The translations under genes were made by a program, and so were the position numbers. The notes under the pieces were generated by a model that ran no database searches, was not told the origin of the DNA, and saw only the letters and a program-made list of their open reading frames with translations. A DNA stretch of 64,000 nt from assembly GCF_947488715.1 (NCBI RefSeq), contig NZ_CANLAG010000001.1, forward strand, positions 248,001-312,000, in the 5' to 3' direction. Origin of the DNA: an uncultured Tateyamaria sp. GTDB taxonomy: Bacteria > Pseudomonadota > Alphaproteobacteria > Rhodobacterales > Rhodobacteraceae. This document shows, one piece after another, positions 6,985 through 31,674 of this stretch. Within the stretch, counting starts at the first letter, position 1; each line of letters begins with the position of its first letter.

Positions 6985-6998
6985 CAAGGAACGCGCCC

Positions 6999-7982
6999 AT
7001 GCCTGTGCCAGCCCCCAACCTTTACCCGGACTTCAACACGGTCCGCCTCAGCCACGCCTGCCTGAACGTCCGCGATCTGGATGTGTCCAAGCGGTTCTAT
7101 GTCGACACCCTTGGCCTGCAAGTCACCGATGAAACCGACACGCACGTCTATCTGCGCGCAATGGAGGAACGCGGCCACCACTGCCTCATCCTGCAGAAAT
7201 CAGACCAGCCCGGCACCGTCGACGCCGTGGGGTTCAAAACCTTTGACGAGGATGATCTGGACCGCGCCCATGCCTATTTCGAGGCCAGGGACCGCCCGGT
7301 GTCTTGGGTGGATCGCCCGTTTCAGGGCCGTACCCTGCTGACGTCGGACAACATCGGCATCCCGCTGGAATTCTATCACAAGATGGACCGCCTGCCACCC
7401 ATCCATCAGAACTATGCGCTCTACCGTGGTGTCAAACCGCTGCGGATCGACCATTTCAACTGCTTCAGCCACGATGTCGACGCCAGCGTCGCGTTCTATT
7501 CCGACTTTGGGTTTCGCGTCACCGAATACACCGAGGACGCAGACAGCAAACGGCTCTGGGCCGCGTGGCTACACCGCAAGGGCGGCGTGCATGATATGGC
7601 CTTTACCAACGGCACCGGGCCGCGATTGCACCACGTCGCGTTCTGGGTGCCAACGCCGCTGAACATCATTGACCTGCTCGATCTGATGGCGACCACGGGC
7701 TATGTCGACCACATCGAACGCGGGCCGGGGCGGCACGGTATTTCCAACGCCTTCTTCCTCTATGTCCTCGACCCCGACGGCCACAGGATCGAGATCTACT
7801 GCTCGGATTACCAGACGGTCGATCCGGACCACGAGCCGATCCATTGGGACCTCAAGGACCCGCAGCGACAAACGCTGTGGGGCGCGGCCGCACCAGAAAG
7901 CTGGTTCAAACACGGGTCCCTCTTTGTCGGCGTCGACACACAGGACAGCCAGATCAAGGCCAGCCCGATCATCGCGCCCTGA
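6999..7982 (+). CDS. hpaD: 3,4-dihydroxyphenylacetate 2,3-dioxygenase
   Basis: This 327-residue protein is a two-domain type I (vicinal oxygen chelate) extradiol dioxygenase that opens the homoprotocatechuate ring. The metal ligands can be placed as His152 (LRIDHFNCF), His211 (RLHHVAFW) and Glu265 (HRIEIYC), and the acid-base His198 lies in GGVHDMAF; these match in order and spacing the Brevibacterium-type homoprotocatechuate dioxygenase. So this is the VOC type of HpaD and not the LigB-like type of E. coli. AAGGAA precedes the ATG. It is the second gene of the hpa operon. Confidence 0.94.
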   Translation: MPVPAPNLYPDFNTVRLSHACLNVRDLDVSKRFYVDTLGLQVTDETDTHVYLRAMEERGHHCLILQKSDQPGTVDAVGFKTFDEDDLDRAHAYFEARDRPVSWVDRPFQGRTLLTSDNIGIPLEFYHKMDRLPPIHQNYALYRGVKPLRIDHFNCFSHDVDASVAFYSDFGFRVTEYTEDADSKRLWAAWLHRKGGVHDMAFTNGTGPRLHHVAFWVPTPLNIIDLLDLMATTGYVDHIERGPGRHGISNAFFLYVLDPDGHRIEIYCSDYQTVDPDHEPIHWDLKDPQRQTLWGAAAPESWFKHGSLFVGVDTQDSQIKASPIIAP

Positions 7983-8000
7983 CAGGCAGGAAGGCATCAC

Positions 8001-8855
8001 ATGAAATTCGCAACCTACTCCGCCGAGGGCGCCACCTATTTCGGCGCTGTGACCGATGCCGGGATGATCGCCCTGAACAGTGCCGCGCCGCAGTGGCCAA
8101 CCCTGTTCGACGCGGTCTGTGCGGACGGGCTGCAAACGCTGGCCGATATTGCACGCGACCGGCCCGTGACGCACAGGGATGTCCAATATGAAATGGTCCT
8201 GCCCGAGGCCCGCCGCATTCTCTGTGTCGGTGTGAATTTCCCGGACCGCAATGCCGAGTACAAGGACGGCAGCGAACAGCCAAAATACATGTCCCTCTTT
8301 CCGCGCTTTGCCAGCGGGTTCACAGGCCACGACCAGCCACTGATCCGCCCCCCCGAAAGCCACCAACTCGACTACGAGGGCGAGGTAGCGATTGTCATTG
8401 GCAAGGGGGGGCGCCGCATCGCGCAGGCCGATGCCTACGACCACATCGCGGCGCTCACCATCTGCAACGAAGGCACGATCCGCGACTGGGTGCGCCACGC
8501 GAAATTCAATGTCACTCAGGGCAAGAACTGGGATCGGTCGGCTGCAATGGGGCCATGGCTTGTCCCGTTCACTGATGCGCGCCTATTGGACGACGCCCGC
8601 ATCATCACCCGCGTGAACGGCGAGGTGCGACAGGACGATGTTCTGGCCCGTATGATGCACCCCATCCGGCGAGAGATCGAATACATCTCGACCTTCATGG
8701 CACTGCAACCCGGCGACATCATCGTAACGGGTACGCCCACGGGGTCCGGCGCACGGCTTGATCCACCTCAATTCCTGGCACCCGGCGACGTGGTAGAGGT
8801 CGAGGTTAACGGCATTGGTATTTTACGAAACACAATTCAGGACGAAATTGAATGA
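8001..8855 (+). CDS. fumarylacetoacetate hydrolase family protein, probable OPET decarboxylase (HpaG-like)
   Basis: A 284-residue FAH-fold enzyme. The metal-binding region is clear: RRILCVGVNFPDR opens the catalytic domain, LDYEGEVAIVIGKGGR gives the Glu-x-Glu ligands, and GTPTGSG closes the site. In this operon it most probably performs the decarboxylation/isomerisation of 5-oxopent-3-ene-1,2,5-tricarboxylate done elsewhere by HpaG/HpcE. E. coli HpaG has two FAH modules in tandem whereas this protein has one, so one enzyme may do both steps or a second is encoded elsewhere. Its end overlaps the hpaH start by 4 bases, implying translational coupling. Confidence 0.82.
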   Translation: MKFATYSAEGATYFGAVTDAGMIALNSAAPQWPTLFDAVCADGLQTLADIARDRPVTHRDVQYEMVLPEARRILCVGVNFPDRNAEYKDGSEQPKYMSLFPRFASGFTGHDQPLIRPPESHQLDYEGEVAIVIGKGGRRIAQADAYDHIAALTICNEGTIRDWVRHAKFNVTQGKNWDRSAAMGPWLVPFTDARLLDDARIITRVNGEVRQDDVLARMMHPIRREIEYISTFMALQPGDIIVTGTPTGSGARLDPPQFLAPGDVVEVEVNGIGILRNTIQDEIE

Positions 8856-9652
8856 CGCCGGAACAACACGCTCAGGCCGCCTCTGATCTATTGCACGCCG
8901 AGGCGACGGGCACTCAGATTGGCCTGCTGTCGCAACAATACCCCGCGATGGATGTGGATGACGCTTATGCCATCCAGAACGCGATTCACACCGCCAAGCT
9001 GACGCAGGGGCGGTCGGTTGTGGGCTGGAAGATCGGGCTGACCTCCAAGGCGATGCAATACGCGCTGAACATCGACATACCCGACAGCGGCATCCTGTTC
9101 GACGACATGGTGTTCGAACATGGCTCGACCGTCCCTGCGGGGCGTTTCATCCAGCCGCGGGTCGAGGCCGAGATCGCCTTTGTGATGAAAGGGGCGCTGG
9201 GTGGCGCTGACGTCACCCGCGACGCGGTGCTCGCGGCGACGGATTATGTCGCGCCATCGCTCGAAATTCTCGATACGCGGATCGTGCGGGCCGATCACCA
9301 GACCGGGCAGACCCGCAATGTGTTCGACACCATCAGCGACAATGCTGCAAACGCGGGCATCGTGCTTGGGCCCCAACGGTACCAACCTGGCGAATTTGAT
9401 CTGCGATGGGTCGGGGCCATCACCAGCCGCAATGGCGAGGTCGAGGAAACCGGCCTTGGGGCCGGGGTGCTGAACGACCCGGTGCAAAGCGTCGTTTGGC
9501 TGGCGCGTCGCATGGCCAACTATGGGCAAAGCATCGCGCCGGGTCAGGTGATCCTGTCCGGCAGCTTTATCCGCCCGGTGGAATGCCCGCCCGGTTCGCA
9601 GATTTCGGCCGATTTCGGTCGGTTCGGCGGTGTTGAGATCGCGTTTGCCTGA
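8852..9652 (+). CDS. hpaH: 2-oxo-hept-4-ene-1,7-dioate hydratase
   Basis: A 266-residue member of the hydratase/decarboxylase branch of the FAH superfamily. The signatures VVGWKIGLTSKAMQ, QPRVEAEIAFVMKG (metal-binding Glu pair), SLEILDTRI and VILSGSFIRP are all typical of HpaH/MhpD/XylJ-type enzymes. In the homoprotocatechuate pathway it hydrates 2-oxohept-4-ene-1,7-dioate to the 4-hydroxy compound that HpaI then cleaves. The start overlaps the upstream stop (ATGA). It is the last gene of the operon; no hpaI or hpaF follows and the next gene is convergent, 6 bases away. Confidence 0.92.
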   Translation: MTPEQHAQAASDLLHAEATGTQIGLLSQQYPAMDVDDAYAIQNAIHTAKLTQGRSVVGWKIGLTSKAMQYALNIDIPDSGILFDDMVFEHGSTVPAGRFIQPRVEAEIAFVMKGALGGADVTRDAVLAATDYVAPSLEILDTRIVRADHQTGQTRNVFDTISDNAANAGIVLGPQRYQPGEFDLRWVGAITSRNGEVEETGLGAGVLNDPVQSVVWLARRMANYGQSIAPGQVILSGSFIRPVECPPGSQISADFGRFGGVEIAFA

Positions 9653-9658
9653 CCGGGG

Positions 9659-10651
9659 TCAGCAGTACCGCTCGGGGCCTTCCCACTGCGTCGATGTATA
9701 GCGATCTCCGGCGGCCCATCCGACTGGCAGAACGGCGTCGATCCGGGCCAGATCATCCGCGCTCAACGTCATCTCCATCCCCTGCAACAGTTCTGCCAGA
9801 TGCGCAGTGTTCTTTGTGCCGGGGATCGGCAACACGTGGTCGCCGCGCGACACCAGCCACGCAATCGCCACCGCCGCTGCGGGCGCGCCCATCTCTGCGG
9901 CCAGCGCGCGGAACCGGTCGGTTGCGGCGATGTTGGCGCTGTAGTTCGGCTCGACGAAACGCGGGTTGTCCTTGGTAAAGGCCATCGACTGCCCGTGTGC
10001 GTAGCTGAACGGCGCATCGGTCAGAAACGCCCGCCCAACGGGGGAAAACGCGACCAGCGTGACGTCCATTTCGGCGCAGGTCTGGATCAGCCCCAACTCA
10101 GGCGCGCGGGTCGACAGCGAATATTCGGACTGCACCGCCGCAATCGGGCATTCAGTGGCGGCGCGACGCAAGGTGTGGGGCGCAATCTCTGAAAAGCCCA
10201 CGGCGCGGGTCTTGCCTGCGTCGATCAGTGACTTGAGCGTTCCGGCCACGTCCTCGGGGCTGTGGGCGGTGTCCAGCCTGTGCACATAGAACAGATCAAC
10301 ATGATCAACACCCAGCCGTTGCAGGCTCTCGTCCAGACACTGCGTGAGGTAGGCGGGATCGTTGTTGAACCGTCGCTCCGGCTGGCCGGTGATGCCGGCC
10401 TTGGTCGCAAGCACCATGTCATCCCGCGCGCCGGGTGTGTCCTTGAACCAACTGCCGATGATCTCTTCGGACCGGCCCGCGCCATAGACGTTTGAGGTGT
10501 CGATATGGGTCACGCCCGCATCCCGGCAGGCATGCAGCACGGCATGGCTGTCTTCGGGTGTGGCGTTTCCGTAGATCCCGGCGAATGACATCGCGCCAAT
10601 GCCGAACTGAGACACCGCAGGGCCACTTGCCCCCAGACGGATGGTTTTCAT
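9659..10651 (-). CDS. aldo/keto reductase
   Basis: A 330-residue AKR barrel. Visible catalytic elements are Asp/Tyr in HIDTSNVYGAGRSEEI, Lys in MVLATKAG and His in DHVDLFYVHRLD; the C-terminal LPIPGTKNTAHL is the NADPH phosphate-binding segment. ATG at 10651 was chosen over upstream extension because GGGGAG lies before it and the protein then begins MKTIRLGASG, as in the AKR13/YajO-like group. It is expected to reduce aldehydes or ketones with NADPH; the substrate is unknown. It converges on hpaH and lies downstream of the tricarboxylate operon, from which it is separated by about 100 bases containing a 16-base palindrome. Confidence 0.9.
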   Translation of the reverse strand: MKTIRLGASGPAVSQFGIGAMSFAGIYGNATPEDSHAVLHACRDAGVTHIDTSNVYGAGRSEEIIGSWFKDTPGARDDMVLATKAGITGQPERRFNNDPAYLTQCLDESLQRLGVDHVDLFYVHRLDTAHSPEDVAGTLKSLIDAGKTRAVGFSEIAPHTLRRAATECPIAAVQSEYSLSTRAPELGLIQTCAEMDVTLVAFSPVGRAFLTDAPFSYAHGQSMAFTKDNPRFVEPNYSANIAATDRFRALAAEMGAPAAAVAIAWLVSRGDHVLPIPGTKNTAHLAELLQGMEMTLSADDLARIDAVLPVGWAAGDRYTSTQWEGPERYC

Positions 10652-10733
10652 GGCTGAACTCCCCTGCCTTGCTGCCCGTGCAGGTATAGGCCGCCGGGCC
10701 GCGGAACGCACCCGAATTGCGGCGCGCAGGTGC

Positions 10734-10749
10734 TGTCCCCGCGGGGACA
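10734..10749. repeat. 16-base perfect palindrome, copy 1
   Basis: TGTCCCCGCGGGGACA lies between the citryl-CoA lyase stop and the aldo/keto reductase start. The same 16 bases form the core of a longer palindrome at 14754-14775, so two copies bracket the tctB-tctA-CoA transferase-lyase block. With no loop and no T-run it does not look like a terminator. Confidence 0.7.
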
Positions 10750-10753
10750 AAAC

Positions 10754-11539
10754 TCAAGTGCTTTTATCTATTGGATTTTTGCCAGTGTAGGTCCAGCGAT
10801 AGCCGGGTGGGGTCGGCCCCTTGTTGCGCCCGCCCTGCTGGGTCTGTTCCCACGCATGAGACAGGATGCCAACAGAGCGCGACAAACAGAAAAGGCCCCG
10901 CGCCAACGGTGCCGGAAACCCCAGTTCGGCAAAGATGACGGCTGTCGCGCCGTCGATGTTCATCGGAATGGGTTTGCCCTTGGCCTCGGCCAACGTGGTC
11001 TCGACCGCGCGCGCAATAGCAGCAAAACGGCCAGTGACGACATCCGCCGCTGCGGCGTCATCGACCAGCGCCAACAGACGCGGCGCACGTGGGTCGACTG
11101 GCGTGTGAAACCGGTGGCCAAAGCCTGGGATGTATGGCCCGTTTTCAGCGCGCCACTCGTCCAGCACAGCCTCAGTATCCGCAGGGTCGCCAATGCGGTG
11201 AAACAGCACAACCGCCTGTTCGCCCGCGCCACCATGCACATCGTCCAGCATGTTCACCGCCGACGCCATTGCACCGTTCAGCCCCAAACCGCAGGTCACG
11301 GCCATACGCGCGGTCGCAATGGACGGCGCTTGCGGGCCATGGTCCACCGCCGCAACCAGCGCCGCCTCGAGCAGATGGGCCTCTTCGGCGCTGGGCATGT
11401 CACCGCGCGTCATCAGCCAGATCATCTGGACAAAGCCGACAGTGCCGATCAGGTCCTCGATCGGATGCCCGCGCATCCGGATCTGACCGGGGGCCATGTC
11501 GATGATCTCTGTCTGCCACCAATCGGATACGTCGCTCAT
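10754..11539 (-). CDS. citryl-CoA lyase (citrate synthase fold)
   Basis: At 261 residues this is much shorter than citrate synthase (about 430) but retains the catalytic triad: His in DDVHGGAGE (about 102), His in PGFGHRFH (about 142) and Asp in MNIDGATA (about 196). This fits the citryl-CoA lyase type, which splits citryl-CoA (or a related acyl-CoA) into acetyl-CoA and oxaloacetate. Its start overlaps the CoA-transferase stop by 4 bases, and the pair follows the TctCBA transporter genes. The likely path is uptake of a tricarboxylate, CoA transfer, then cleavage. The exact acid (citrate, citramalate or similar) is not shown by the sequence. Confidence 0.83.
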   Translation of the reverse strand: MSDVSDWWQTEIIDMAPGQIRMRGHPIEDLIGTVGFVQMIWLMTRGDMPSAEEAHLLEAALVAAVDHGPQAPSIATARMAVTCGLGLNGAMASAVNMLDDVHGGAGEQAVVLFHRIGDPADTEAVLDEWRAENGPYIPGFGHRFHTPVDPRAPRLLALVDDAAAADVVTGRFAAIARAVETTLAEAKGKPIPMNIDGATAVIFAELGFPAPLARGLFCLSRSVGILSHAWEQTQQGGRNKGPTPPGYRWTYTGKNPIDKST

Positions 11540-12729
11540 ATCGCCCCCTTTTCGGTCAGGTCCCTGATGTCCGACGCGTCCAGCCCCAGCGCGCCCCAGA
11601 CCTCGGACGCATGCGCGCCCAGTTCGGGTGGCGGCGTGCCGACCTCGAGCGGTGCGCCGTCCAGTTTGACCCCGGTGTTCACCACCGAGATATCGCGCCC
11701 CACACCCGGCACATCGGCAAATTGCGACAGCAATCCGCGCTCTGCCACCTGAGGATGATCGAGCACGTCAGCCACGGACATGACGGCCCCCGCAGGCACG
11801 CCAATGCGGTTCAGGTCCCGCGCCAGATCGCGCGCGGTGTGATCGGTCAGTGCCGCCTCGATACGTGCGCGCAGGGCATGCCGGTTGCGCTTGCGGTCTT
11901 CGCGGGTGGCATAGTCGGGGTCGTCCCGCAAGACCGCCAGCCCCAGATGGTCCGACAACAGCACCCACTGTTCGTCCTTGTTGGCGGCGATGTTGATCAA
12001 CCCGTCGCCTGTTTGAAACGCGCCCGATGGTGCGGATGTCGGGTTTTCATTCCCATGTGCCGCAGGCATCGCCCCCGCGATCAGGTGGTTGGAGACAACC
12101 CAGCCCATCGTGGCCAGCACGCTTTCCAGCATCGAGCAGTCGATAAAGCAGCCCCTGGGCCGCGCATTCAACGCCGATGCAATGGCAAAGGCCGCCGTCA
12201 TTCCGCCCACCGTGTCCGCCACAGGGTATCCGACACGCAGCGGGGCGCTGTCAGCGTCGCCCGTGATCGACATCACACCCGACACGCCCTGAATGATCTG
12301 ATCATAGGCGGGGCGGTCGACCCACGGTCCGTCCTGCCCGAAGCCCGAGATTGCGCAATAGATCAAGTCCGGTTTCACGTCCCTTAGGGCGTCATACCCA
12401 AGACCCAGCCGGTCCATCACTCCGGGGCGAAAATTCTCGACCACCACATCTGCAGTGGCCACCAGCCGCAGAAACAGCACCTTGCCGTCGGGGTGCTTGA
12501 AGTTGACGGTGACCGACCTCTTGCCCGCGTTCTGGGCGAGAAAAGACACGCCCATATGCGCAGCATTCAGCTCCGGATCGGCACCAAGCTGGCGGGCAAG
12601 ATCGCCGCGCCCCGGTGCCTCGACCTTGATCACGTCAGCGCCCATATGCGCAAGCTGGTGGCAGCAAAAGGGCCCGGCCAGAACATTGGTCAGGTCGAGC
12701 ACCCGGATGCCGGCAAGCGGTTTAGTCAC
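11536..12729 (-). CDS. family III CoA-transferase (CaiB/BaiF)
   Basis: A 397-residue CaiB/BaiF-type CoA-transferase. It opens LAGIRVLDLTNVLAGPF, has the conserved VKVEAPGRGDLAR and NAGKRSVTVNFKHPDGK segments, and VVVENFRPGVMDRLGLGYD, all family landmarks; the catalytic Asp is expected shortly after, in the AYDQIIQGVSG region. The start is GTG at 12729, placed inside the end of tctA, with GAGGG upstream. It is sandwiched between tctA and the citryl-CoA lyase gene with overlaps on both sides, which implies it activates the imported acid as a CoA thioester. Confidence 0.9.
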   Translation of the reverse strand: MTKPLAGIRVLDLTNVLAGPFCCHQLAHMGADVIKVEAPGRGDLARQLGADPELNAAHMGVSFLAQNAGKRSVTVNFKHPDGKVLFLRLVATADVVVENFRPGVMDRLGLGYDALRDVKPDLIYCAISGFGQDGPWVDRPAYDQIIQGVSGVMSITGDADSAPLRVGYPVADTVGGMTAAFAIASALNARPRGCFIDCSMLESVLATMGWVVSNHLIAGAMPAAHGNENPTSAPSGAFQTGDGLINIAANKDEQWVLLSDHLGLAVLRDDPDYATREDRKRNRHALRARIEAALTDHTARDLARDLNRIGVPAGAVMSVADVLDHPQVAERGLLSQFADVPGVGRDISVVNTGVKLDGAPLEVGTPPPELGAHASEVWGALGLDASDIRDLTEKGAI

Positions 12730-14236
12730 CGTCGGCCACGCCCTCGGCCCGTGCCCGCGCGCGCCGCGCCCGGTAGCTGGGCAGGATCACCAACAGCGCC
12801 GCGACGATCAACAGACCAAGCGTCATGGGGCGTTCCCAGATGAACCCGATACCATCATAAAGCTGCATGGACCGGCTGAAGTTGTCCTCGAGCATGCCGC
12901 CCAGAATGAAGCCGATCAGCAGCGGTGCCAACGGATAATCGGCAAAGCGCAGCACGGTCGCACAGACGCCAAAGCCCACAAGCAACAGCAGTTCGGTCGC
13001 GTTGTTTTGCCCGATATAGGCCCCCATCAGCGTAAAAAAGAGGATGAATGGGATCAGGAAATTGCGCGGCACCGCGAGGATCTTGGCGATGTAGGGGATC
13101 AACGGCAGGTTCAGGATCAGCAGCACAAGGTTACCGATATACATCGAGATGATCACCGCCCAGAAGATCTGCGGATCGTCGAGCATCAGCCGAGGGCCGG
13201 GCGTGACGTTCAGCGCAATGAGCGCGCCCAACAGGATGGCCGTGGTGCCCGAGCCGGGAATGCCCAGCGTCAGCAGCGGGACAAAGGACCCGGTACAGGC
13301 CGCGTTGTTGGCAGTCTCTGGCGCGGCAAGACCCTTGATCGACCCTTTGCCGAACTCCTGTTTTTCCTTCTCTGGCGCGATGTTGCGCTCGACCGCGTAG
13401 CCCAGGAACGACGCGATGGTCGCCCCCGCACCGGGCAGCACGCCGATGAAAAAGCCTTGCAGCGATTGGCGACCAATCACCGGCGCAATGGATTTGGCTT
13501 CGTCGCGGGTGATGCGCAGATCCTTGATATCGCCGGACTGGCCGGACTTGGACCGCGCGGGGTCCATGACCAGATACAGCGCCTCGGGCAGCGCAAACAT
13601 CGCCATGGCCAACGTGATGAAGGCAAAGCCGGATTGCAGGTCCATCAGCCCCATCGTGAAACGCGGCATGTTAAAGAGCGCGCCCTCGCCAACGGTGGCC
13701 ATGATCAGGCCCAGCAGGGTCATCATGATGGCCTTGGCCACCTGACCGGTGCCCGCAAAGGCCGCGATGGCCGACAGGCCCACAACCATCAGTGCAAAGT
13801 ACTCGGCAGAGTGGAACAGCAGGGCCACGGATGACAGCATTGGCGCAAAGATCATCAACAGGATGGCCCCAACCGTGCCGCCACAGAAAGACGCGATGGC
13901 GGCGATGGTCAGTGCTTTGCCCGCCTTGCCGTCACGGGCCATGGGGTAGCCATCAAAACTGGTTGCGACCGTGCCCGCGACCCCCGGCGCGTTCAGCAGA
14001 ATGGACGAGGTCGAGCCACCAAAGATGGCGCCGTAGTAGACGCCAGCCAGCAGGATCAGCGCGGCTGAGGGATCACCCAGCGAGATGGCGACAGGGATCA
14101 TGATGGCGATGATCGACATCGGGCCAAGGCCCGGCAACATACCGATGAACGTGCCGATGAGACAGCCGCCGATGACCATGAGGAGGTTTTGAACAGAAAA
14201 GGCCGTTTGCAGGCCGATCAGGATACCTTCGAGCAT
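12722..14236 (-). CDS. tctA: tripartite tricarboxylate transporter large permease TctA
   Basis: This 504-residue protein is the large, roughly 12-helix membrane subunit of a tripartite tricarboxylate transporter. The family signature GTFIGMLPGLGPMSIIAIMIP is near the N-terminus (partial quote of the motif: GMLPGLGPMS), and FGGSTSSILLNAPG and a second GVLPGAGATIASFLGY repeat reflect the internal duplication of the family. ATG at 14236 starts the standard MLEGILIGLQ. It works with TctB and the periplasmic binder TctC to import tricarboxylates with cation symport. It overlaps the CoA-transferase start and lies 4 bases after tctB. Confidence 0.94.
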   Translation of the reverse strand: MLEGILIGLQTAFSVQNLLMVIGGCLIGTFIGMLPGLGPMSIIAIMIPVAISLGDPSAALILLAGVYYGAIFGGSTSSILLNAPGVAGTVATSFDGYPMARDGKAGKALTIAAIASFCGGTVGAILLMIFAPMLSSVALLFHSAEYFALMVVGLSAIAAFAGTGQVAKAIMMTLLGLIMATVGEGALFNMPRFTMGLMDLQSGFAFITLAMAMFALPEALYLVMDPARSKSGQSGDIKDLRITRDEAKSIAPVIGRQSLQGFFIGVLPGAGATIASFLGYAVERNIAPEKEKQEFGKGSIKGLAAPETANNAACTGSFVPLLTLGIPGSGTTAILLGALIALNVTPGPRLMLDDPQIFWAVIISMYIGNLVLLILNLPLIPYIAKILAVPRNFLIPFILFFTLMGAYIGQNNATELLLLVGFGVCATVLRFADYPLAPLLIGFILGGMLEDNFSRSMQLYDGIGFIWERPMTLGLLIVAALLVILPSYRARRARARAEGVADGD

Positions 14237-23300: not shown

Positions 23301-24074
23301 TCACAATGCGGCGCGGGGGCGGCGAGAGAAGGTGAGGTCACGCAGCGTGACCTGGTTCATTTCCGGCCCTTCAAAGATCAGGTCGATCCATGCCCGTTCC
23401 ACGCGCTTTTCGTTCAGCTTGGAATAGGCCAGGTCGAACTCGACGGTGACGTTTTCCTGATTGAGAGGCAGTTCGCGCACAATCTGTTCGGTGTTGGGGC
23501 CGTGCCGGATGTTGAGCCGGCCAAAGATTTCGAGCGGTTTTTCCATCTCGACGATGGCGTTCATACCCACAAGGTGGGTTTTGCGCAGGCCCTGCACGGA
23601 CTCGGGGGGCAGGTCGATGACCAGCGACAGGAACGAGCCGTCAAACTGGAAAACGTCCATGCGCAGGCCGTAGGGCGCCAGGTCTTCTTCGCGCAGGTTG
23701 CGGATCTGGCGCAGGGTCAATTCGCTCAGTGCACAGTCGTGGAACAGCGTCGCCTCGCGGCCCAGCATCGATTTCGTCTGGACCGAGGATGCACCGGGTG
23801 TGGGCAACGGGCCGCGCCACAGCTCTGGCCGCCAGGACCAGTCGGCGTTGTGGGGGCGTGGAAAGCTGGTGGCACCGATGGCGGGCAGGGCCAGCCGTTC
23901 GTCGGCCTTGTGGATCAGACGGTCGAGGTGGCTGCGCATGAGGCGCGCGGCACTGCGCAGGCCGCGCAGTTCATCCAGCCGTGTTTCGCCCGCATTGCGG
24001 GCGGCACGGGCCCAGCGGCGCATCGCGCGTCGATGCGCCAGTTTGTCGATGAGCCTGATGCTTTTGCCTGCCAT
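23301..24074 (-). CDS. DUF6478-like conserved hypothetical protein
   Basis: A 257-residue soluble protein resembling the DUF6478 group of Rhodobacteraceae (from memory). The N-terminal third is very basic and helical (LAHRRAMRRWARAARNAGE). The C-terminal part is beta-rich, with VFQFDGSFLSLVIDLPPESV, RLNIRHGPNTEQIVRELPL and VTVEFDLAYSKLNEKRVERAW. No signal peptide or membrane helix is seen and no catalytic motif is evident. It is co-directional with the gene at 22916 and probably in one transcript with it. Function unknown. Confidence 0.7.
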   Translation of the reverse strand: MAGKSIRLIDKLAHRRAMRRWARAARNAGETRLDELRGLRSAARLMRSHLDRLIHKADERLALPAIGATSFPRPHNADWSWRPELWRGPLPTPGASSVQTKSMLGREATLFHDCALSELTLRQIRNLREEDLAPYGLRMDVFQFDGSFLSLVIDLPPESVQGLRKTHLVGMNAIVEMEKPLEIFGRLNIRHGPNTEQIVRELPLNQENVTVEFDLAYSKLNEKRVERAWIDLIFEGPEMNQVTLRDLTFSRRPRAAL

Positions 24075-24125: not shown

Positions 24126-24767
24126 TCAAAGGTTTCTCTGAAATAAACCGGCGAGACCTGATTTGCTCGATTGTTTTGCCGGTGTCGTTGCAGATTTGTC
24201 CTGTGTCGCGGCTGTTTGGCTTTGGGTGCGGGTCATAGTCTGGATCAACAGGGCGGGTGCATCATCGCCCAGTTCGGGGCCATCCGCAGCCTCGTAAATG
24301 GCAAACCCGACCGCCTGTGTCCCGATGGTGCCAACCGCGCGCCAGAACACGTCTCGTACACCCGGCCCCGGTGGGGTGCCGCGCACCTGCGCCAGGGTCA
24401 GCGTGTCGGTGGTTGTGCTGTTCAACACGGTTTCACCATTCGCACCAAGTGTCGCCGGCGACACGTCTTGGCCGTCCAGTGCCGCCACGGTGGTTGCCGT
24501 GATGATCGCAAGCGGCTGGCCCAGCCCGGTTTCCCCGCCCAGCGTGTCGCACCGTGCGATCAGGGCAAAGCTGGCGCGCAGGCTGCGCTGGTCGATGCAG
24601 TAACCATCTGGCGGCACCAAGGTCACCGCGCCACGGCCCAGTTCAGCCGTCAGCAGCGGCGCGGGTGTGGCCGCGCCGCCCAGGTCAATCTGTCCGATAT
24701 CGTCGCAACCTGCGAGAACCGCCAGAGCGGTCCCCGCAACGAGACCCTTACAGGTCCATGTATTCAT
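24126..24767 (-). CDS. hypothetical lipoprotein
   Basis: A 213-residue protein with a lipoprotein signal: [14 protein letters not shown] has the lipobox LAGC with the lipidated Cys at about residue 21, followed by Asp-Asp, which in E. coli would favour inner-membrane retention. The body contains two more Cys ([16 protein letters not shown]) spaced for a possible disulfide, and the tail is Gln/Ser/Lys-rich. I do not recognise a domain. The start lies 20 bases inside the end of ilvD, so it is probably co-transcribed with that housekeeping gene. Confidence 0.75.
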
Positions 24768-26511
24768 GGCGTTCGACCTTGGCGCCGGGATGCGTCACCG
24801 CCCCCTTGTAGGTTTCACCCACGAGCTGTGCGTATTTCCACAGCGCGCCTGAGGCATAGATCGTTTCGCGCGGGCCTTTCCAGTCGGCTTTGCGCGCGGC
24901 CAGTTCGTCGTCGGTCAGGTCGACATTGATCGACCCTTCGATGGCGTTGATGGTGATCACGTCGCCGTCCTTGAGCAGCGCGATGGGACCGCCATGGGCC
25001 GCCTCGGGACCAACGTGACCCACGCAGAAGCCGCGTGTCGCGCCCGAGAACCGGCCATCGGTAATCAGCGCAACCTTTTTGCCCATACCTTGACCCGACA
25101 GGGCCGCAGTGGTGGCCAGCATCTCGCGCATGCCCGGACCGCCCGAGGGTCCTTCATTGCGGATAACGAAGACTTCGCCTTCTTCATAGGTGCGGTTCTG
25201 TACGGACTCGAACGCGTCCTGCTCGCATTCGAACACGCGCGCCGGACCGGTAAAGATCTGGTGCTGAGGCTCGATGCCCGCGACCTTCACGATGGCGCCT
25301 TCGGGGGCGATATTGCCCTTGAGGCCCACAACGCCGCCGGTCTTGGTGATCGGTGTCTCAACCGGGTGGATGACGCGGCCATCGGCCTCGCCTTGGATCT
25401 TGTCCAGTTCCTCGCCAATGGAGTTGCCGGAGGCGGTGATGCAGTCCTCGTGCAAGAGGCCCGCCTTGCGCAGCTCTTTCATCACCACATAGACGCCGCC
25501 CACCTCATAGAGGTCCTTGGCCACGTATTGCCCGCCGGGTTTCAGGTCGACGAAATAGGGGGTGTCGCGGAAAATCTCGCAGACATCATCGAGATAAAAG
25601 TCGATGCCTGCCTCGTGCGCCATTGCGGGCAGGTGCAGACCGGCATTGGTCGACCCACCGGTACAGGCAACGACACGTGCCGCGTTCTCGAACGCTTCGC
25701 GGGTGCAGATGTCGCGCGCACGGATGTTGCGCTCGATCAGGGTCATGACGGCCGCGCCGGACGCCTCGGCATACTGGTCGCGCGACTGGTAGGGTGCGGG
25801 TGCGCCGGACGAATTGGGCAGCGCCAGGCCAATCGCTTCGGACACGCAGGCCATGGTGTTGGCGGTGAACTGGCCACCGCAGGCCCCGGCGGAGGGGCAG
25901 GCCACACGCTCCAGAATGTCCAGCTCGGCCTCTGTCATGGTGCCGTTTTGCTGGTGGCCCACGGCCTCGAACATGTCCTGCACTGTGAGGTCGCGGTTTG
26001 CATATTCGGCGGGCACCTGTGCGCCCGACGGCGCGCGACCCGGCAGGATCGACCCGCCATAGAGGAACACGGACGGCACGTTCAGACGGATCATCGCCAT
26101 CATCATGCCGGGCAGGGATTTGTCACAACCCGCCAGACCCACGATGGCGTCATAGCAGTGGCCGCGCATGGTCAGCTCGACCGTGTCGGCAATCGCCTCG
26201 CGGGAGGCGAGCGACGACCGCATGCCCTCGTGGCCCATGGCGATCCCGTCGGTGACGGTGATGGTGGTGAATTCGCGGGGCGTGCCATAGGCAGATTTCA
26301 CACCCATCTTGACCGACTGTGCCTGACGGTTCAGCGCGATGTTACAGGGGGCCGCCTCGTTCCAGCAGGTTGCGACGCCAACCAGCGGCTGGTGGATTTC
26401 TTCTTCGGTCATGCCCATGGCGTAGTAGTAGGACCGGTGCGGCGCGCGTGCGGGCCCCTCGGTCACGTGACGGCTGGGCAGCTTGGATTTGTCGAACTTG
26501 CCTTTGAGCAT
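24748..26511 (-). CDS. ilvD: dihydroxy-acid dehydratase
   Basis: A 587-residue IlvD/Edd family enzyme that dehydrates 2,3-dihydroxy acids in valine, leucine and isoleucine synthesis. Iron-sulfur cluster cysteines are seen in [10 protein letters not shown] (about 56), [11 protein letters not shown] (about 129) and [10 protein letters not shown] (about 211), and the C-terminal [20 protein letters not shown] is the family signature. GGGAGA precedes the ATG. It is divergent from the large ABC gene across about 170 bases. The length and all motifs are normal. Confidence 0.97.
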
Positions 26512-26680: not shown

Positions 26681-29600
26681 ATGGATTCCACCCTTTTTGC
26701 GTTCATCTGGAAACACTCCAAGCGCGACCAGCTGATGCTGCTGGCGCTGACGGTGGTGACCTTCCCGTTTCTCTACGTCACGCTGGAGTTGCCCAAGCGG
26801 ATCATCAACGACGCCATTGGCGCCACGGATTCGACCATCGACGTGCTGGGGTTCCAGATTACGCAGATCCAGTTCCTGCTGGCCTTGTGTTTCGGATATC
26901 TGGGCGCGGTGTTGGTGCATGGCCTGCTCAAGATGCGATTGAACACGATGAAAGGTGTGACCGCCGAACGCCTGTTGCGCCGCTTCCGGTTCCAGTTGAT
27001 CAGCCGCATGTTGCGGTTTCCGCGCAGCTATTTCCGATCCACCAGCCAGGGCGAGCTGGTCAGCATGGTTACATCCGAGGCCGAGCCGATGGGCGGTCTG
27101 ATGGGCGATATGGTGGCCCAACCGGTGTTCCAGGCTGGCCAGATGCTGATCATCCTCGTGTTTCTGTTCCTGCAATCGGTGTGGTTCGGGCTGGCCGGTA
27201 TCGCGCTGATCCCGCTTCAGGCTTGGCTTATCCCGCTGTTGCAACGGCGCATCAACCTGCTGAACAAGGAACGGATCAAGCACGTGCGCGCGTTCTCTGC
27301 CGAGATCGGTGAGAGTGCGGCGGGCATTTCCGACCTGCGCACCAATGGCGGCCTGCGGTTCCGTCTGGCCCAGTTCACCTCGCGCCTCGGTCACATCTTT
27401 GACCTGCGCTTCCGTATCTATCAGCAAAAGTTCTTTATGAAGTTCCTCAACAACTTCATCACCCAGCTGACGCCGTTCTTTTTCTATTCGGTGGGTGGGT
27501 ATCTGGCCATTCGCGGGGACATCACCGTGGGCGCGCTGGTGGCGGCGATTGCGGCCTACAAAGACCTGTCGAGCCCGTGGAAAGAGTTGCTGACCTATTA
27601 CAACCAGACGCAGGATATGGCCCTGCGTTGGGAGATTGTCACAGACCGGTTTGCCCCGCGCGACATGGTCGACGAGAGCCTGTTCGAGGGTGAGCCAGAC
27701 GAAATCCCGCACCTGCGCGGCGACATTGTTCTGAACAACGTGACCGTGCGCAACACCGACAACAACCCCGTGCTGGAACGGATGGACCTGACCATTCCAC
27801 AAGGCAGCCGCGTCGCAATCCAGGCCAAGAACCAGACCGAGCGTACGGCGCTGGCCGAATTGCTGACCCGCGAGGTCCTGCCCGACCGGGGCACGGTCGA
27901 GATGGCGGGCTATGATCTGGCGCATCTGCACCAGGCGGTGATCTCGGCACGCATCGGTTACGCCCATTCGCGCCCCTACCTCTTTGACGGGACCCTGGGC
28001 ACCAACCTGCTGATGCCGCTGATGACCAGCCCAAAGCCGCGCGAGGACGCCCCGCGCAGGGACCGCGTCCTGAACGAGGCACGGCGGTCGGGCAACAGCC
28101 TTGATACTGTGGATGCGGATTGGCTGGATCCGTCACTGGCCGGGCTGAACAGTGCCGACGAAATCCGCAAATGGTGGTTTGAGTTGGTGCAGGCCATGGG
28201 TATCGACGAATTCATGTTCCGCCGCATGCTGAACAGCCGGATCGACCCCAAGGCGCACCCGGAACTGGCCAAGGCCATTGTCGACCTGCGCCCGGCGGTG
28301 GAACACTGTTTGCAAGACAAGGGCGTGATCGACGCCGTCTATCGGTTTGACCCGGACGAATTCAATCCGGCGGTTCCGTTGGGCGGCAACCTGCTCTTTG
28401 CGGCGCCGTCGCGTGACATCAGCCAACAGGGGCTGGCCCGCGATGCACGTTTCATCAACCTGCTGTTTGAACATGGGCTCGCCGAACAAGGCATCGCCAT
28501 CTCGCAGACCCTGATCGAAACGCTGCACCAGACCTTTGGTATGGACGGCACCAACCACCCGCTGTTCACCGCGCTCAACATCGAGGAAGAGATGTACGAG
28601 CAATTGGTCGACATCGCCGGTCGCCGCCGCGAACGGGGTGATGTGGCGCTGACCGATGACGAATTTGCCCTGCTGCTCACCGTGCCGTTCGCCTTCACCG
28701 CCGAACAGATCGGCCCGGCCTTTCCCGACAGCTTTAAAAAGGACATCGTGGGCATCCGAAAAACAAGCGGTGCGGCCCTGCGCGCGCAGACGCAGAACGT
28801 GTTTGTGCCGATCCAGCCGGACACGTACTTGCCGCGTCTCACCTTGCTTGAAAATGCCCTCTATGGCCGGATTTCGATGGTGGCTGGCACCAAGGGTGAG
28901 TTGATCGAAGACCTCGTTGCCGATCTGCTGACCGAAAATGACCTGCGCCGCTTGGTGGCCGAGACGATCTTTGACATCCGCACGGGGTTGGGCGGCACCA
29001 ACCTGCCTACGATCTTCCACGAGCGCGCAGCGTTTTCGCGCGCGGGCATCAAACGCCCCGATGTACTTGTTCTGGATCGCGCACTTGCCAGCCACAGCGC
29101 CGAGGAACGGCGGCGTACGCGGGTCGCCCTGCGCAAGCTGTTGCCCGAGTCCACACTGATCTTTCTCGAAGAGAAGTTCGAGAACCCTGACGCCTATGAC
29201 CTCTTTGTCGAAATCAAGGACGGGCGCATTGACGGGCTGCAAGTGAACGAAGACGAAGAAGAGGGCGATGACCTCAGCCGCAAGCTGCGCGCGATATCGC
29301 GGGCCGATCTGTTTGCGGGCATTGATGGCCGCAATCAGCGTCTGCTGGCCTTTGCCGCACAGTGGTACGACGCCGAGCCGGGGCAGCGTATCTTCTCGAT
29401 GGAAGAGCGCGCGGACGCGGCCTATTTGTGTGTGTCCGGCACCGCGGTGCTCAGCTATGACGCAGACAACGGGGTTGAGCGTGCGGTGACCACCGTGGAA
29501 CCGGGACGCCTGATCGGGGACCTGTCGATCATTCTGGACGAACCGCGCCAGTTGCATCTGACAGCCCAGAGCGACGTGACTTTCCTGCGGATTGGCGCTG

Positions 29601-29758
29601 CGGAATTCCGCGCGGTTTTGGAAAACGACTCGAACGTGCTCATGAGCCTGCTCAAGACCGTGTCCAGCCACCTGACCGGTGCCGCCGACCTGTTGCGGCA
29701 AGCCAACGTGCAGATCCCACAGGAAGAGGGCCCGCCACCCCCGCCGCTTGACGAATGA
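26681..29758 (+). CDS. degenerate ABC exporter with large insertion and C-terminal cyclic-nucleotide-binding-like domain
   Basis: A 1025-residue fusion. Residues about 15-300 form an ABC exporter membrane domain (FRSTSQGELVSMVTSEAE, SPWKELLTYYNQTQ). The nucleotide-binding domain (about 345-850) is strongly decayed: the Walker A region reads VAIQAKNQTERTALAELL with no GKS/T, the signature position reads IFHERAAFSRAG and not LSGGQ, and Walker B is VLVLDRAL with no catalytic Glu. An insertion of roughly 270 residues (about 450-720) splits the domain between the Q-loop region and the signature region. Residues about 885-1005 resemble a cyclic-nucleotide-binding domain, with GRLIGDLSIILDEPRQLHLT at the phosphate cassette. 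The stop overlaps the CPBP gene (ATGA). ATP hydrolysis seems unlikely. Confidence 0.85.
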   Translation: MDSTLFAFIWKHSKRDQLMLLALTVVTFPFLYVTLELPKRIINDAIGATDSTIDVLGFQITQIQFLLALCFGYLGAVLVHGLLKMRLNTMKGVTAERLLRRFRFQLISRMLRFPRSYFRSTSQGELVSMVTSEAEPMGGLMGDMVAQPVFQAGQMLIILVFLFLQSVWFGLAGIALIPLQAWLIPLLQRRINLLNKERIKHVRAFSAEIGESAAGISDLRTNGGLRFRLAQFTSRLGHIFDLRFRIYQQKFFMKFLNNFITQLTPFFFYSVGGYLAIRGDITVGALVAAIAAYKDLSSPWKELLTYYNQTQDMALRWEIVTDRFAPRDMVDESLFEGEPDEIPHLRGDIVLNNVTVRNTDNNPVLERMDLTIPQGSRVAIQAKNQTERTALAELLTREVLPDRGTVEMAGYDLAHLHQAVISARIGYAHSRPYLFDGTLGTNLLMPLMTSPKPREDAPRRDRVLNEARRSGNSLDTVDADWLDPSLAGLNSADEIRKWWFELVQAMGIDEFMFRRMLNSRIDPKAHPELAKAIVDLRPAVEHCLQDKGVIDAVYRFDPDEFNPAVPLGGNLLFAAPSRDISQQGLARDARFINLLFEHGLAEQGIAISQTLIETLHQTFGMDGTNHPLFTALNIEEEMYEQLVDIAGRRRERGDVALTDDEFALLLTVPFAFTAEQIGPAFPDSFKKDIVGIRKTSGAALRAQTQNVFVPIQPDTYLPRLTLLENALYGRISMVAGTKGELIEDLVADLLTENDLRRLVAETIFDIRTGLGGTNLPTIFHERAAFSRAGIKRPDVLVLDRALASHSAEERRRTRVALRKLLPESTLIFLEEKFENPDAYDLFVEIKDGRIDGLQVNEDEEEGDDLSRKLRAISRADLFAGIDGRNQRLLAFAAQWYDAEPGQRIFSMEERADAAYLCVSGTAVLSYDADNGVERAVTTVEPGRLIGDLSIILDEPRQLHLTAQSDVTFLRIGAAEFRAVLENDSNVLMSLLKTVSSHLTGAADLLRQANVQIPQEEGPPPPPLDE

Positions 29759-30669
29759 GCGTCTGGTCCTTTGATTACCGCCCGCACCGGCGTTTCGTTG
29801 CGACGGCGGAACACAGTGCGCAGGTGTGGCGTTTGCTGTTGGGCATCGTGCTGGCTGCGGCGATATTTCTTGCGCTGTCCCGGATGTTGATCAGCACCGT
29901 GTTCACGGTGCTTGAGCCGGGCGCACGGTCTACCTTGATCGCGGACGGGTCGTCGGGCCAGACAGCGGGCGGGATGCTGTTGATGCTGTTCCAGCTGGGC
30001 CTCTTGGCGGTCACGGCGGCCATTGTGGTGATCATGGTGCACAAGCGTCGCCCCTTGACGCTTATCGGCCCGTTGGGTTTGGCGGCGCGTCAGTTCATGG
30101 CCGTGCTGGCGATACTCGCGATCCTGATCGTGGTGCTGACGATCTTGCCACCCTACGGCTATGGCGACGATGGCGGCGCATTGGAACGGAACATGGGTCT
30201 GGGGCGCTGGCTGTTGCTGTTGCCCTTCGCGCTGATTGCGGTACTGGTGCAGACCGGGGCCGAAGAGATTTTCTTTCGCGGGTACATCCAGCAACAACTG
30301 GCTGCGCGGTTCCGATCCCCGATGATCTGGATGCTGTTGCCCGCGTTTCTGTTTGGCATCGGCCACTACCTGCCCGAAAGTGCGGGCAGCAATGCCGTGA
30401 CCATTGCTGTCTGGGCCACGGTGTTTGGCCTGTTGATGGCAGACCTGACGGCGCGCTCAGGCACGTTGGGACCTGCGATGGCGGTGCATTTCGTCAACAA
30501 CATCTCGGCCATGGTGCTGACCAGCACACCCGACGAGATGTCTGGCCTCGCGCTCTATGTGCTGCCGTTCGGTATCGGGGACGAGGCCGCGATGGCGGCG
30601 TGGTTGCCGGTGGATTTCGGGTTCATGCTGGTGATGTGGCTGGCCGCGCGCCTTGCCATACGCGCCTGA
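29755..30669 (+). CDS. CPBP family intramembrane glutamic protease
   Basis: A 304-residue polytopic protein with about eight hydrophobic segments. The CPBP (Abi/Rce1-like) motifs are complete: Glu170-Glu171 and Arg175 in TGAEEIFFRGY, His204 in LFGIGHYL and His245/Asn249 in VHFVNNI. An active membrane protease is therefore likely. It starts within the stop of the ABC-like gene (ATGA), so the two are translated together and probably form one functional unit. The substrate is unknown. accD follows after 75 bases and may be separately promoted. Confidence 0.9.
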   Translation: MSVWSFDYRPHRRFVATAEHSAQVWRLLLGIVLAAAIFLALSRMLISTVFTVLEPGARSTLIADGSSGQTAGGMLLMLFQLGLLAVTAAIVVIMVHKRRPLTLIGPLGLAARQFMAVLAILAILIVVLTILPPYGYGDDGGALERNMGLGRWLLLLPFALIAVLVQTGAEEIFFRGYIQQQLAARFRSPMIWMLLPAFLFGIGHYLPESAGSNAVTIAVWATVFGLLMADLTARSGTLGPAMAVHFVNNISAMVLTSTPDEMSGLALYVLPFGIGDEAAMAAWLPVDFGFMLVMWLAARLAIRA

Positions 30670-30744: not shown

Positions 30745-31674
30745 ATGAACTGGATCACCAACTACGTCCGGCCCCGGATCAACTCGATCTTTTCGCGGCG
30801 CGAGACCCCGGACAACCTTTGGACCAAATGCGATGAATGCGGCACCATGCTGTTTCACCGCGAGCTGTCGGACAATCTGAACGTCTGCACGAACTGCAAT
30901 CATCACATGGCGATCACCCCGCGTGACCGGTTTATCGCGCTGTTCGACGGTGGCATTTTCACCCAGATCGACGTGCCCGCGCCCGTGGCAGACCCGCTCC
31001 AGTTCCGCGACCAAAAGAAATATCCCGACCGGATGAAAGCCGCCCAAAAGGGCACCGGCGAAGAAGAGGCAATGCTGGTGGCCGCAGGCGAGATCGGGCG
31101 CACGCCCATCATCGCAGCAGCGCAGGATTTCTCGTTCATGGCGGGATCCATGGGCATGTATGTCGGCAATGCGATCATTGCCGCAGCCGAAGAGGCGGTC
31201 AAACTGCGCCGCCCGCTGGTTCTGTTTTCCGCCGCAGGCGGTGCCCGGATGCAAGAGGGCATCCTGAGCCTGATGCAGATGCCGCGCACGACAGTGGCTG
31301 TGCAGATGCTGAAAGAGGCGGGCTTGCCTTACATCGTGGTGCTGACCCATCCGACCACGGGTGGGGTAACGGCGTCCTATGCGATGCTGGGGGACGTGCA
31401 TATCGCTGAACCCAATGCGCTGATCTGCTTTGCCGGGCCGCGCGTGATCGAACAGACGATTCGTGAAAAACTGCCCGAAGGGTTCCAGCGCGCCGAGTAC
31501 CTGCTGGATCACGGGATGCTGGACCGTGTGACCAGCCGGACCCAGATGCGCGACGAGTTGATCGGGATCACCCGCATGCTGATGGGCCTGCCGCCTGCCG
31601 TCAAAGGCGACCTGCCAGCGCCGACTGATATGCCCGAGCCCCAAGACGCCGAAGGCGACACTGCCGCGCCATGA
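30745..31674 (+). CDS. accD: acetyl-CoA carboxylase carboxyltransferase subunit beta
   Basis: A 309-residue AccD. The N-terminal zinc finger has four Cys at about 29, 32, 48 and 51 (TKCDECG, NVCTNCNHH), and the carboxyltransferase domain shows FMAGSMGMYVGNAI, LFSAAGGARMQEG and HPTTGGVTASYAMLGD. It works with AccA to make malonyl-CoA for fatty acid synthesis. The stop overlaps the folC start by 4 bases, the usual accD-folC pairing. The tail after the domain is Pro/Glu/Ala-rich and non-conserved. Confidence 0.97.
   Translation: MNWITNYVRPRINSIFSRRETPDNLWTKCDECGTMLFHRELSDNLNVCTNCNHHMAITPRDRFIALFDGGIFTQIDVPAPVADPLQFRDQKKYPDRMKAAQKGTGEEEAMLVAAGEIGRTPIIAAAQDFSFMAGSMGMYVGNAIIAAAEEAVKLRRPLVLFSAAGGARMQEGILSLMQMPRTTVAVQMLKEAGLPYIVVLTHPTTGGVTASYAMLGDVHIAEPNALICFAGPRVIEQTIREKLPEGFQRAEYLLDHGMLDRVTSRTQMRDELIGITRMLMGLPPAVKGDLPAPTDMPEPQDAEGDTAAP

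What the first reader, a model, noticed from the sequence alone, without database searches (positions are those of the whole stretch)
26681..30669. Catalytically dead-looking ABC exporter fused to a cyclic-nucleotide-binding-like domain and coupled to a CPBP protease
The exporter has no Walker A Lys-Ser/Thr, no LSGGQ and no Walker B Glu, yet the frame is intact over 1025 codons. A large unknown insertion of about 270 residues sits inside the nucleotide-binding domain and a cNMP-type domain is at the C-terminus. The next gene, an intact CPBP intramembrane protease, overlaps its stop codon. This suggests a membrane receptor or scaffold that uses the ABC fold for something other than ATP-driven transport, controlling a protease in response to a nucleotide.
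Basis: partly seen in the sequence, partly recalled or inferred. Interest (0 to 1): 0.78.

Follow-up and report, generated by a model that had tools for sequence, protein, structure and literature searches.

The report
ATP-dead ABC exporter with cyclic-nucleotide domain
A transporter-like membrane protein of marine bacteria has lost the residues needed to use ATP yet is kept intact by selection, carries a cyclic-nucleotide-type domain and tends to occur with a set of sugar-polymer genes, so it may work without ATP.

Summary
The gene at 26681-29758 encodes a 1025-residue type IV ABC exporter whose NBD lacks the P-loop Gly-Lys, LSGGQ, Walker B Glu and switch His, has a 289-residue net insertion and a C-terminal cNMP domain, and overlaps a CPBP gene by 4 bases. 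It is no sequencing error: the Walker A Lys is Arg in 40 of 40 rows of this copy (A) and 33 of 33 of a paralogue (B), under purifying selection. The insertion contains a tandem repeat and is shared by a wide alphaproteobacterial family whose members mostly keep a separate cNMP gene beside the exporter. The protease link is weak: CPBP sits next to accD in all 20 loci fetched that lack copy A. The steadier partner is a glycosyltransferase (GT) cluster: of 385 sampled genomes 131 have the ABC, 127 the GT4, 124 both; in this family 30 of 31 ABC-bearing genera have the GT4. Best reading: an ATP-independent, cyclic-nucleotide-regulated pseudo-exporter of a glycan module. The dead NBD is well supported and the glycan link fairly so; dimer, ligand, substrate and mechanism are inferred.

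The parts
26681..29758 (+). gene for the 1025-aa pseudo-ABC exporter with C-terminal cNMP domain (copy A)
26681..27655 (+). transmembrane domain, residues 1-325 (type IV exporter TMD)
   Evidence: lowest dN/dS of the parts measured, 0.074 for residues 1-330
27713..28015 (+). N-terminal part of the NBD, residues 345-445, up to the Q-loop segment
27824..27847 (+). P-loop remnant AKNQTERT (residues 382-389); Glu387-Arg388 in 40 of 40 A rows
28016..28975 (+). insertion, residues 446-765, between Q-loop segment and signature remnant; confidently folded helical model, no PDB match at E up to 0.001
28259..28495 (+). insertion repeat unit 1 (residues 527-605), contains NLLFA
   Evidence: hhalign of the two halves, E 6e-15
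28727..28960 (+). insertion repeat unit 2 (residues 683-760), contains NALYG
   Evidence: hhalign of the two halves, E 6e-15
28997..29026 (+). signature-motif remnant TNLPTIFHER (residues 773-782)
29060..29083 (+). Walker B remnant DVLVLDRA (residues 794-801), catalytic Glu replaced by Arg800
29375..29629 (+). cNMP-binding domain (residues 899-983); phosphate-binding-cassette Asp947 and Arg956 in 40 of 40 A rows
29755..30669 (+). CPBP intramembrane protease gene, 4-base overlap with the ABC gene; judged a neighbour rather than a dedicated partner
24748..26511 (-). ilvD, divergent neighbour; marks the conserved chromosomal position of copy A
30745..31674 (+). accD, downstream neighbour; next to CPBP with or without the ABC gene

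Best explanation
This is an ATP-incompetent type IV ABC exporter half-transporter (pseudo-ABC) of an alphaproteobacterial family that goes with a conserved glycan-assembly module: four glycosyltransferases, a histidine phosphatase and a polysaccharide-deacetylase-like gene. SHOWN: the NBD has lost its catalytic residues and is kept by selection; the insertion contains a tandem repeat; most distant members are encoded beside a separate cNMP protein with a canonical phosphate-binding cassette, and in most Rhodobacteraceae members that domain is fused to the exporter; the ABC and the GT4 gene are mostly present or absent together. INFERRED: the TMD dimer, perhaps a heterodimer of copy A (this gene) with copy B, moves or gates a lipid-linked sugar or nascent glycan across the inner membrane without ATP hydrolysis. 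Opening and closing would be set by ligand binding to the cNMP domains (cAMP, cGMP or a similar nucleotide such as ppGpp), passed on through the dead NBD and its helical insertion, which act as a coupling scaffold.
For: Dead NBD: Walker A Lys is Arg in 40 of 40 A and 33 of 33 B rows, the last P-loop Gly is Glu in 40 of 40 A and Asp/Glu in 33 of 33 B, and no row of 90 has Lys there (one contig, L060/L228, is counted twice in B). Selection: 14 Tateyamaria sequences, 91 pairs, ratio of mean dN to mean dS 0.107 overall, 0.120 and 0.088 in the two NBD parts, 0.121 in the insertion; 13 pairs saturated at synonymous sites and left out of mean dS. Fold: AlphaFold pLDDT 85; Foldseek hits are type IV exporters (P-glycoprotein first; PCAT1 and TmrAB further down), E 7e-17 to 2e-14, with low whole-chain TM-scores, 0.2-0.37 by query length. 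cNMP: same-strand gene within 559 bases downstream in 41 of 48 distant loci, fused in 2, neither in 5; cassette Glu and Arg in 35 of 35 such genes, R[ST]A in 34. Glycan link: of 385 genomes 131 have the insertion profile (E up to 1e-6), 127 the GT4 (E up to 1e-90), 124 both; in 149 family genera 31, 35 and 30; GT genes in 42 of 48 distant loci. Sulfitobacter dubius has a nucleotide-sugar dehydrogenase, four GTs, histidine phosphatase and polysaccharide deacetylase directly before the fused gene. The window's genome keeps the six-gene cluster on another contig. A with B: 20 of 21 family genera with A also have B. B lies near a Cache-HAMP class III cyclase in 12 of 33 rows (Pfam). Relatives of the TMD alone, with no NBD found by Pfam, exist.
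Against: In copy A the key Glu of the cassette is Asp (40 of 40), so nucleotide binding by this copy is unproven; B keeps Glu (33 of 33). In the window's genome the glycan cluster is not linked to the ABC gene. Co-occurrence is not corrected for shared ancestry; 7 of 131 ABC genomes in the class sample and 1 of 31 in the family sample lack the GT4, and 3 and 5 have the GT4 without the ABC. Some are incomplete, but G302 and G319 (ABC only) and G022, G023 and G814 (GT4 only) are listed at 97-100%. Oligopeptide-type ABC importer genes with intact-looking ATPases recur near the clusters, and one TMD-only relative (L224) directly follows a gene with two ABC ATPase domains, so ATP from a trans ATPase is not excluded. 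No experiment shows transport, a ligand or a dimer.
Confidence: 0.53

Rival explanations
1. Receptor or scaffold that controls the neighbouring CPBP protease in response to a nucleotide.
For: 4-base overlap; CPBP directly downstream in 21 of 21 sampled family genera that have copy A upstream of accD, with its catalytic motifs intact.
Against: CPBP stands next to accD without copy A in 20 of 20 fetched loci; 75 of 149 family genomes have a CPBP homologue and no full-length ABC member; no CPBP beside paralogue B or in 48 distant loci. A weak statistical association of the two genes remains in the family sample (26 of 31 ABC genomes have CPBP against 75 of 118 others, Fisher p 0.03).
Confidence: 0.12
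2. Structural scaffold only: the ABC-fold dimer holds the glycosyltransferases at the membrane and moves no substrate; a separate flippase does the transport.
For: No ATP chemistry; GT co-occurrence.
Against: The TMD is the most constrained part and holds most of the positions that are at least 90% conserved over 82 sequences, more than a mere anchor would need (inference).
Confidence: 0.25
3. ATP or another ligand still matters: a different ligand sits in the altered P-loop, or an active ATPase is supplied in trans.
For: The altered P-loop has its own invariant residues (Glu-Arg in A, Asp/Glu-Arg in B). Of 48 rows outside the fused Rhodobacteraceae set, 25 keep Lys and 18 have Arg, and 40 carry an acid in place of the Walker A Ser/Thr, so the site changed under constraint. 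An ORF cluster whose exemplar is an oligopeptide-type ABC ATPase is in 31 of 82 mapped loci; oligopeptide-type ABC genes flank the module in Rhizobium etli, Sinorhizobium meliloti and Azospirillum ramasamyi; an importer permease lies near the cluster in the window's genome (L219 18283-19500); a TMD-only relative follows a double-ATPase gene.
Against: Both paralogues lack the signature and the Walker B Glu in this family's A and B rows, so an A/B dimer has no complete site of its own. The neighbouring ATPases look like parts of importer systems with their own permeases (annotations).
Confidence: 0.22
4. Decaying pseudogene or assembly error.
For: Loss of every catalytic motif.
Against: 90 rows from many genera, dN/dS about 0.1 including the dead NBD and the insertion, invariant replacement residues.
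Confidence: 0.01

Closest known systems
Type IV ABC exporters with a degenerate nucleotide-binding site (TmrAB, TM287/288, TAP, CFTR; review PMC7756269, passages read)
   Same: Same fold and NBD order; catalytic residues lost at a site that is kept by selection; paired half-transporters plausible.
   Different: In the passages read one degenerate site is paired with one canonical site; here both co-occurring paralogues lack Walker A Lys, signature and Walker B Glu. I know of no duplicated helical insertion or cNMP domain in them (recall).
HetC of Nostoc PCC 7120, peptidase-containing ABC exporter with a cNMP-type domain (PMC10986499, abstract and passages read)
   Same: ABC exporter with a cNMP-type domain on the same chain; that domain is needed in vivo and binds ppGpp in vitro.
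   Different: HetC has the domain at the N-terminus, a C39 peptidase, and an essential catalytic ATPase residue; ours has it at the C-terminus, no peptidase and no such residue.
MsbA-type lipid flippases (NCBIfam TIGR02203, best hit)
   Same: TMD and early NBD similarity; a lipid-linked sugar would suit the glycosyltransferase link (inference).
   Different: 133 bits against a cut-off of 602; no ATPase residues; insertion; cNMP domain.
Alphaproteobacterial about-900-aa ABC exporter plus separate cNMP gene beside a GT cluster (no family name found; in Rhizobium etli CIAT 652 next to genes labelled redA and redB)
   Same: Same TMD, insertion and repeats; cNMP protein as a close downstream gene; GT neighbours.
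   Different: Usually not fused; P-loop partly kept (Lys 25, Arg 18 of 48 rows), LSxxQRQK-like signature in many; 2 of 48 rows have the Walker A and B residues, one of them (L149) also signature and His.

Membership tests
ATP-driven type IV ABC exporter | exporter TMD and ABC NBD fold | tested here: met
   Pfam ABC_membrane, AlphaFold model, Foldseek to type IV exporters
ATP-driven type IV ABC exporter | Walker A GxxGxGK[ST] | tested here: not met
   AKNQTERT; Lys is Arg in 40 of 40 A and 33 of 33 B rows
ATP-driven type IV ABC exporter | signature motif LSGGQ | tested here: not met
   LPTIF at the aligned place
ATP-driven type IV ABC exporter | Walker B catalytic Glu and switch His | tested here: not met
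   Arg800 and Glu831 at the aligned places; the His column tallied is one residue off (830), so one search is the basis
cyclic-nucleotide-binding domain (CRP/CAP type) | domain by profile | tested here: met
   Pfam PF00027, 49.9 bits
cyclic-nucleotide-binding domain (CRP/CAP type) | phosphate-binding cassette GE...R[ST]A (motif recalled) | tested here: inconclusive
   GD...R in A (40 of 40), GE...R in B (33 of 33), R not followed by [ST]A in either as shown; canonical in 34 of 35 separate cNMP genes
cyclic-nucleotide-binding domain (CRP/CAP type) | binds cAMP, cGMP or a similar nucleotide | not testable with these tools
   needs a binding assay
CPBP (Rce1-like) glutamic intramembrane protease (gene 29755-30669) | EExxxR, FxxxH and HxxxN motifs (recalled) | tested here: met
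   invariant in 13 of 13; Pfam Rce1-like, 64.1 bits
ABC-CPBP functional pair | CPBP gene exclusive to genomes with the ABC gene | tested here: not met
   CPBP-accD without copy A in 20 of 20 fetched loci; 75 of 149 family genomes
MsbA lipid A flippase | NCBIfam equivalog cut-off | tested here: not met
   133.2 bits against 602
peptidase-containing ABC transporter (HetC-like) | C39 peptidase domain | tested here: not met
   no such Pfam hit at E up to 1

The most novel reading that the evidence does not exclude
An ABC exporter lineage has given up ATP altogether: an A/B heterodimer with no usable ATP site, switched by cyclic nucleotides bound at C-terminal CRP-type domains, gates or flips a glycan intermediate. 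This would be a ligand-gated transporter or channel evolved from an ATP pump, with the dead NBD, enlarged by a repeat-containing helical insertion, acting as the transmission between sensor and membrane domain.
Probability: 0.3. Interest if true: 0.85.

Novelty: new variant of a known kind. Interest (0 to 1): 0.68.

Why it matters
ABC exporters with one dead site are well known. A lineage in which both co-occurring paralogues are dead, while the domain and the replacement residues stay under strong selection, would test whether an exporter TMD can work without ATP of its own. Distant members with partly kept or intact Walker residues give natural steps along that path. It also points to a glycan module, not described in the papers I could search, in about a third of the 385 alphaproteobacterial genomes sampled, with a cyclic-nucleotide-type protein built in.

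Tried and rejected
Pseudogene or sequencing error: rejected. CPBP as dedicated partner: first favoured, because the pair was found in every genus with copy A; dropped after finding CPBP next to accD in loci without copy A. Whether copy A was inserted beside an older CPBP-accD pair, or was lost elsewhere, was not tested; either way CPBP does not need it. Insertion as an acquired foreign domain: less likely, since its two halves are repeats and weakly resemble the Q-loop segment of the same NBD; Foldseek of the insertion alone found nothing (best E 0.64). An acid swap between Walker A and Walker B in distant members (acid at the Ser/Thr place in 40 of 48 rows, Asp kept at Walker B in 9 of 48) was tested for covariation: Fisher p 0.03, not corrected for ancestry, so left as a remark. 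TamA/TamB beside copy B: in the mapped loci found only in Tateyamaria. Fusion or fission is not settled by the tree, which was rooted at the midpoint and has some long, unsure rows. Nine paper searches (listings and starts of abstracts seen) showed no description of this family or cluster; the library lacks most subscription journals.
Full report
OBSERVATION. The gene at 26681-29758 is an uninterrupted 1025-codon frame. Pfam sees the exporter membrane domain, a cNMP domain at 899-983, and only the first part of an ABC NBD, below its cut-off. The alignment to PCAT1 places every lost residue: GESGSGKT is AKNQTERT, LSEGQKQR is LPTIFHER, the Walker B Glu is Arg800 and the switch His aligns with Glu831. 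The CPBP start codon overlaps the stop codon by 4 bases.

CONSERVATION. The window's genome is nearest to Tateyamaria. Each of the 20 genomes of its genus searched carries two members: copy A (this gene, between ilvD and CPBP-accD) and copy B (about 52% identical; next to a divergent DUF3307 gene in the loci mapped). One search examined 90 rows from the family: 40 A rows (defined by CPBP, or by ilvD plus accD, as neighbours) all have Glu387, Arg388, Asp947 and Arg956; 33 B rows (DUF3307 neighbour) all have Asp/Glu, Arg, Glu and Arg at these places. The other 17 rows (3 Sulfitobacter rows beside the GT cluster, 14 unplaced) also lack the Walker A Lys. In 14 Tateyamaria sequences (91 pairs) the ratio of mean dN to mean dS is 0.107, and 0.074 to 0.129 in the parts measured; 13 pairs were saturated at synonymous sites over the whole gene and left out of mean dS. 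The dead NBD is therefore maintained.

THE INSERTION. A profile of the insertion (A2) matches 131 of 385 genomes of the class sample and 31 of 398 of the phylum sample, all 31 in the same class (how many of the 398 lie outside the class was not shown). The two halves of the insertion are homologous: hhalign probability 98.4, E 6e-15, against E 0.046 or worse for reversed, GT4 and TMD controls. A weaker match of 16-21 columns to the NBD part that ends in the Q-loop segment (E about 1e-3) hints at a third copy of the unit. The insertion folds confidently (pLDDT 91) and has no PDB match (best E 0.64).

THE WIDER FAMILY. Distant members are mostly about 900 residues long without a fused cNMP domain. 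In 41 of 48 loci a cNMP gene follows on the same strand within 559 bases, in 2 it is fused, in 5 neither was found. Its cassette Glu and Arg are present in 35 of 35 such genes, R[ST]A in 34. In the tree (81 rows, midpoint root) the Rhodobacteraceae fusions form one clade with one other fused genome, and a further fusion lies elsewhere. A few members in this family are of the distant type (L080, L266). Of the 48 A3 rows outside the fused Rhodobacteraceae set (not the identical 48 loci; L080 is from this family, L180 and L181 are fused), the Walker A Lys is Lys in 25 and Arg in 18, the Ser/Thr place is acidic in 40, and the Walker B Asp is kept in 9. Two rows (L149, L180) have Lys, Ser/Thr, Asp and Glu together; only L149 also has an LSxxQ signature and the His. 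Partly kept and fully dead sites thus coexist in one family.

PARTNERS. In 42 of 48 distant loci the ABC gene shares its locus with glycosyltransferase genes of the cluster: two GT4-type and two GT28-like enzymes, a histidine phosphatase and a gene annotated as a polysaccharide deacetylase in Sulfitobacter. Its GT4 gene is found at E up to 1e-90 in 127 of 385 genomes; 124 have both, 7 the ABC only, 3 the GT4 only. In 149 genera of this family (one genome each) the ABC is in 31 and the GT4 in 35, with 30 having both. These counts are not corrected for shared ancestry. In Sulfitobacter the cluster runs directly into the fused gene. In the window's own genome the six-gene cluster is intact on contig C5; of 19 mapped ORFs in that stretch 10 were scanned, and no ABC exporter or known flippase family was matched, but one is an oligopeptide-type ABC importer permease. 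Importer-type ABC genes recur near the clusters: an ORF cluster whose exemplar is an oligopeptide-type ABC ATPase is in 31 of 82 mapped loci, and such genes flank the module in Rhizobium etli, Sinorhizobium meliloti and Azospirillum ramasamyi. In Rhizobium etli neighbours carry the labels redA and redB; the held library gave no paper on them.

THE PROTEASE. But CPBP homologues are in 101 of 149 genomes, 75 of them without a full-length ABC member. I fetched 20 CPBP loci without copy A (18 from those 75 genomes, 2 from genomes with copy B only); in all 20 CPBP stands next to accD. A weak association remains (26 of 31 against 75 of 118, p 0.03). So CPBP does not need the ABC gene. Translational coupling may still exist, but it gives no special support to a receptor-protease unit.

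MECHANISM. With A and B both dead and B present in 20 of 21 genera that have A, an A/B dimer would have no complete ATP site. The remaining conserved ligand-type site is in the cNMP domain: Glu and Arg in B, Asp and Arg in A. B lies near a Cache-HAMP class III cyclase in 12 of 33 rows (Pfam), and HetC is a precedent for a cNMP-type domain needed by an ABC exporter, there binding ppGpp (PMC10986499, passages read). Relatives of the TMD alone exist, with no NBD found by Pfam in L221, L223 and L224; one of them (L224) directly follows a gene with two ABC ATPase domains, which speaks for ATPase help in trans, while another (L223) lies near a cyclase. From this I infer ligand-controlled, ATP-independent gating or flipping of a glycan intermediate. 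That step, the dimer, the ligand and the substrate are inferred. A pure scaffold, an altered NBD ligand and a trans ATPase remain open.

NOVELTY. In the records seen the family is annotated only in general terms, such as ABC transporter transmembrane domain-containing protein. Nine paper searches showed no description of it. It is a new variant of the type IV ABC exporter kind rather than a new kind, until its ATP independence is shown.

Noticed in passing
L071 (own genome, contig C3, copy B) 1-13001: Copy B lies between a Cache-HAMP class III cyclase with a DUF3307 gene on one side and TamA/TamB genes on the other; beyond the cyclase lies a large ORF whose homologue in L203 is a PKD-repeat protein.
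   Followed up: partly
48 rows of A3 outside the fused Rhodobacteraceae set (L149, L180 and others): In distant members the Walker A Ser/Thr is usually Asp/Glu and the Walker B Asp usually Asn/Ser/Thr, as if the acidic residue had changed places; weak covariation (p 0.03, uncorrected).
   Followed up: partly
L223 8938-10005, L086 6188-7144, L224 9763-10737, L271 8773-10077: Proteins related to the exporter membrane domain only; one near a class III cyclase, one right after a double ABC ATPase gene, one in a copper-oxidase and cytochrome island on a conjugative Phaeobacter plasmid.
   Followed up: partly
L268 149-6119, L269 1-5342, L270 12358-18499, L219 18283-19500: Oligopeptide-type ABC importer genes recur beside the ABC-cNMP and GT genes in several orders; whether they serve the same glycan module is open.
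   Followed up: partly
L268 6189-9835 (Rhizobium etli CIAT 652 plasmid pA): Genes labelled redA and redB (the latter a glycosyltransferase) next to the distant-type ABC gene and its cNMP gene; no paper on them found in the held library.
   Followed up: partly
L284 3664-5537, L285 3791-5778: Two tandem CPBP genes before accD in some Rhodobacteraceae without the ABC gene.
   Followed up: no
L219 12671-15040 (own genome, contig C5) and L267 2030-4285: An MscS-type channel gene lies near the glycan cluster both in the window's genome and in Sulfitobacter dubius.
   Followed up: no
window 23301-24074: DUF6478 protein, part of the conserved ilvD neighbourhood in this family.
   Followed up: no
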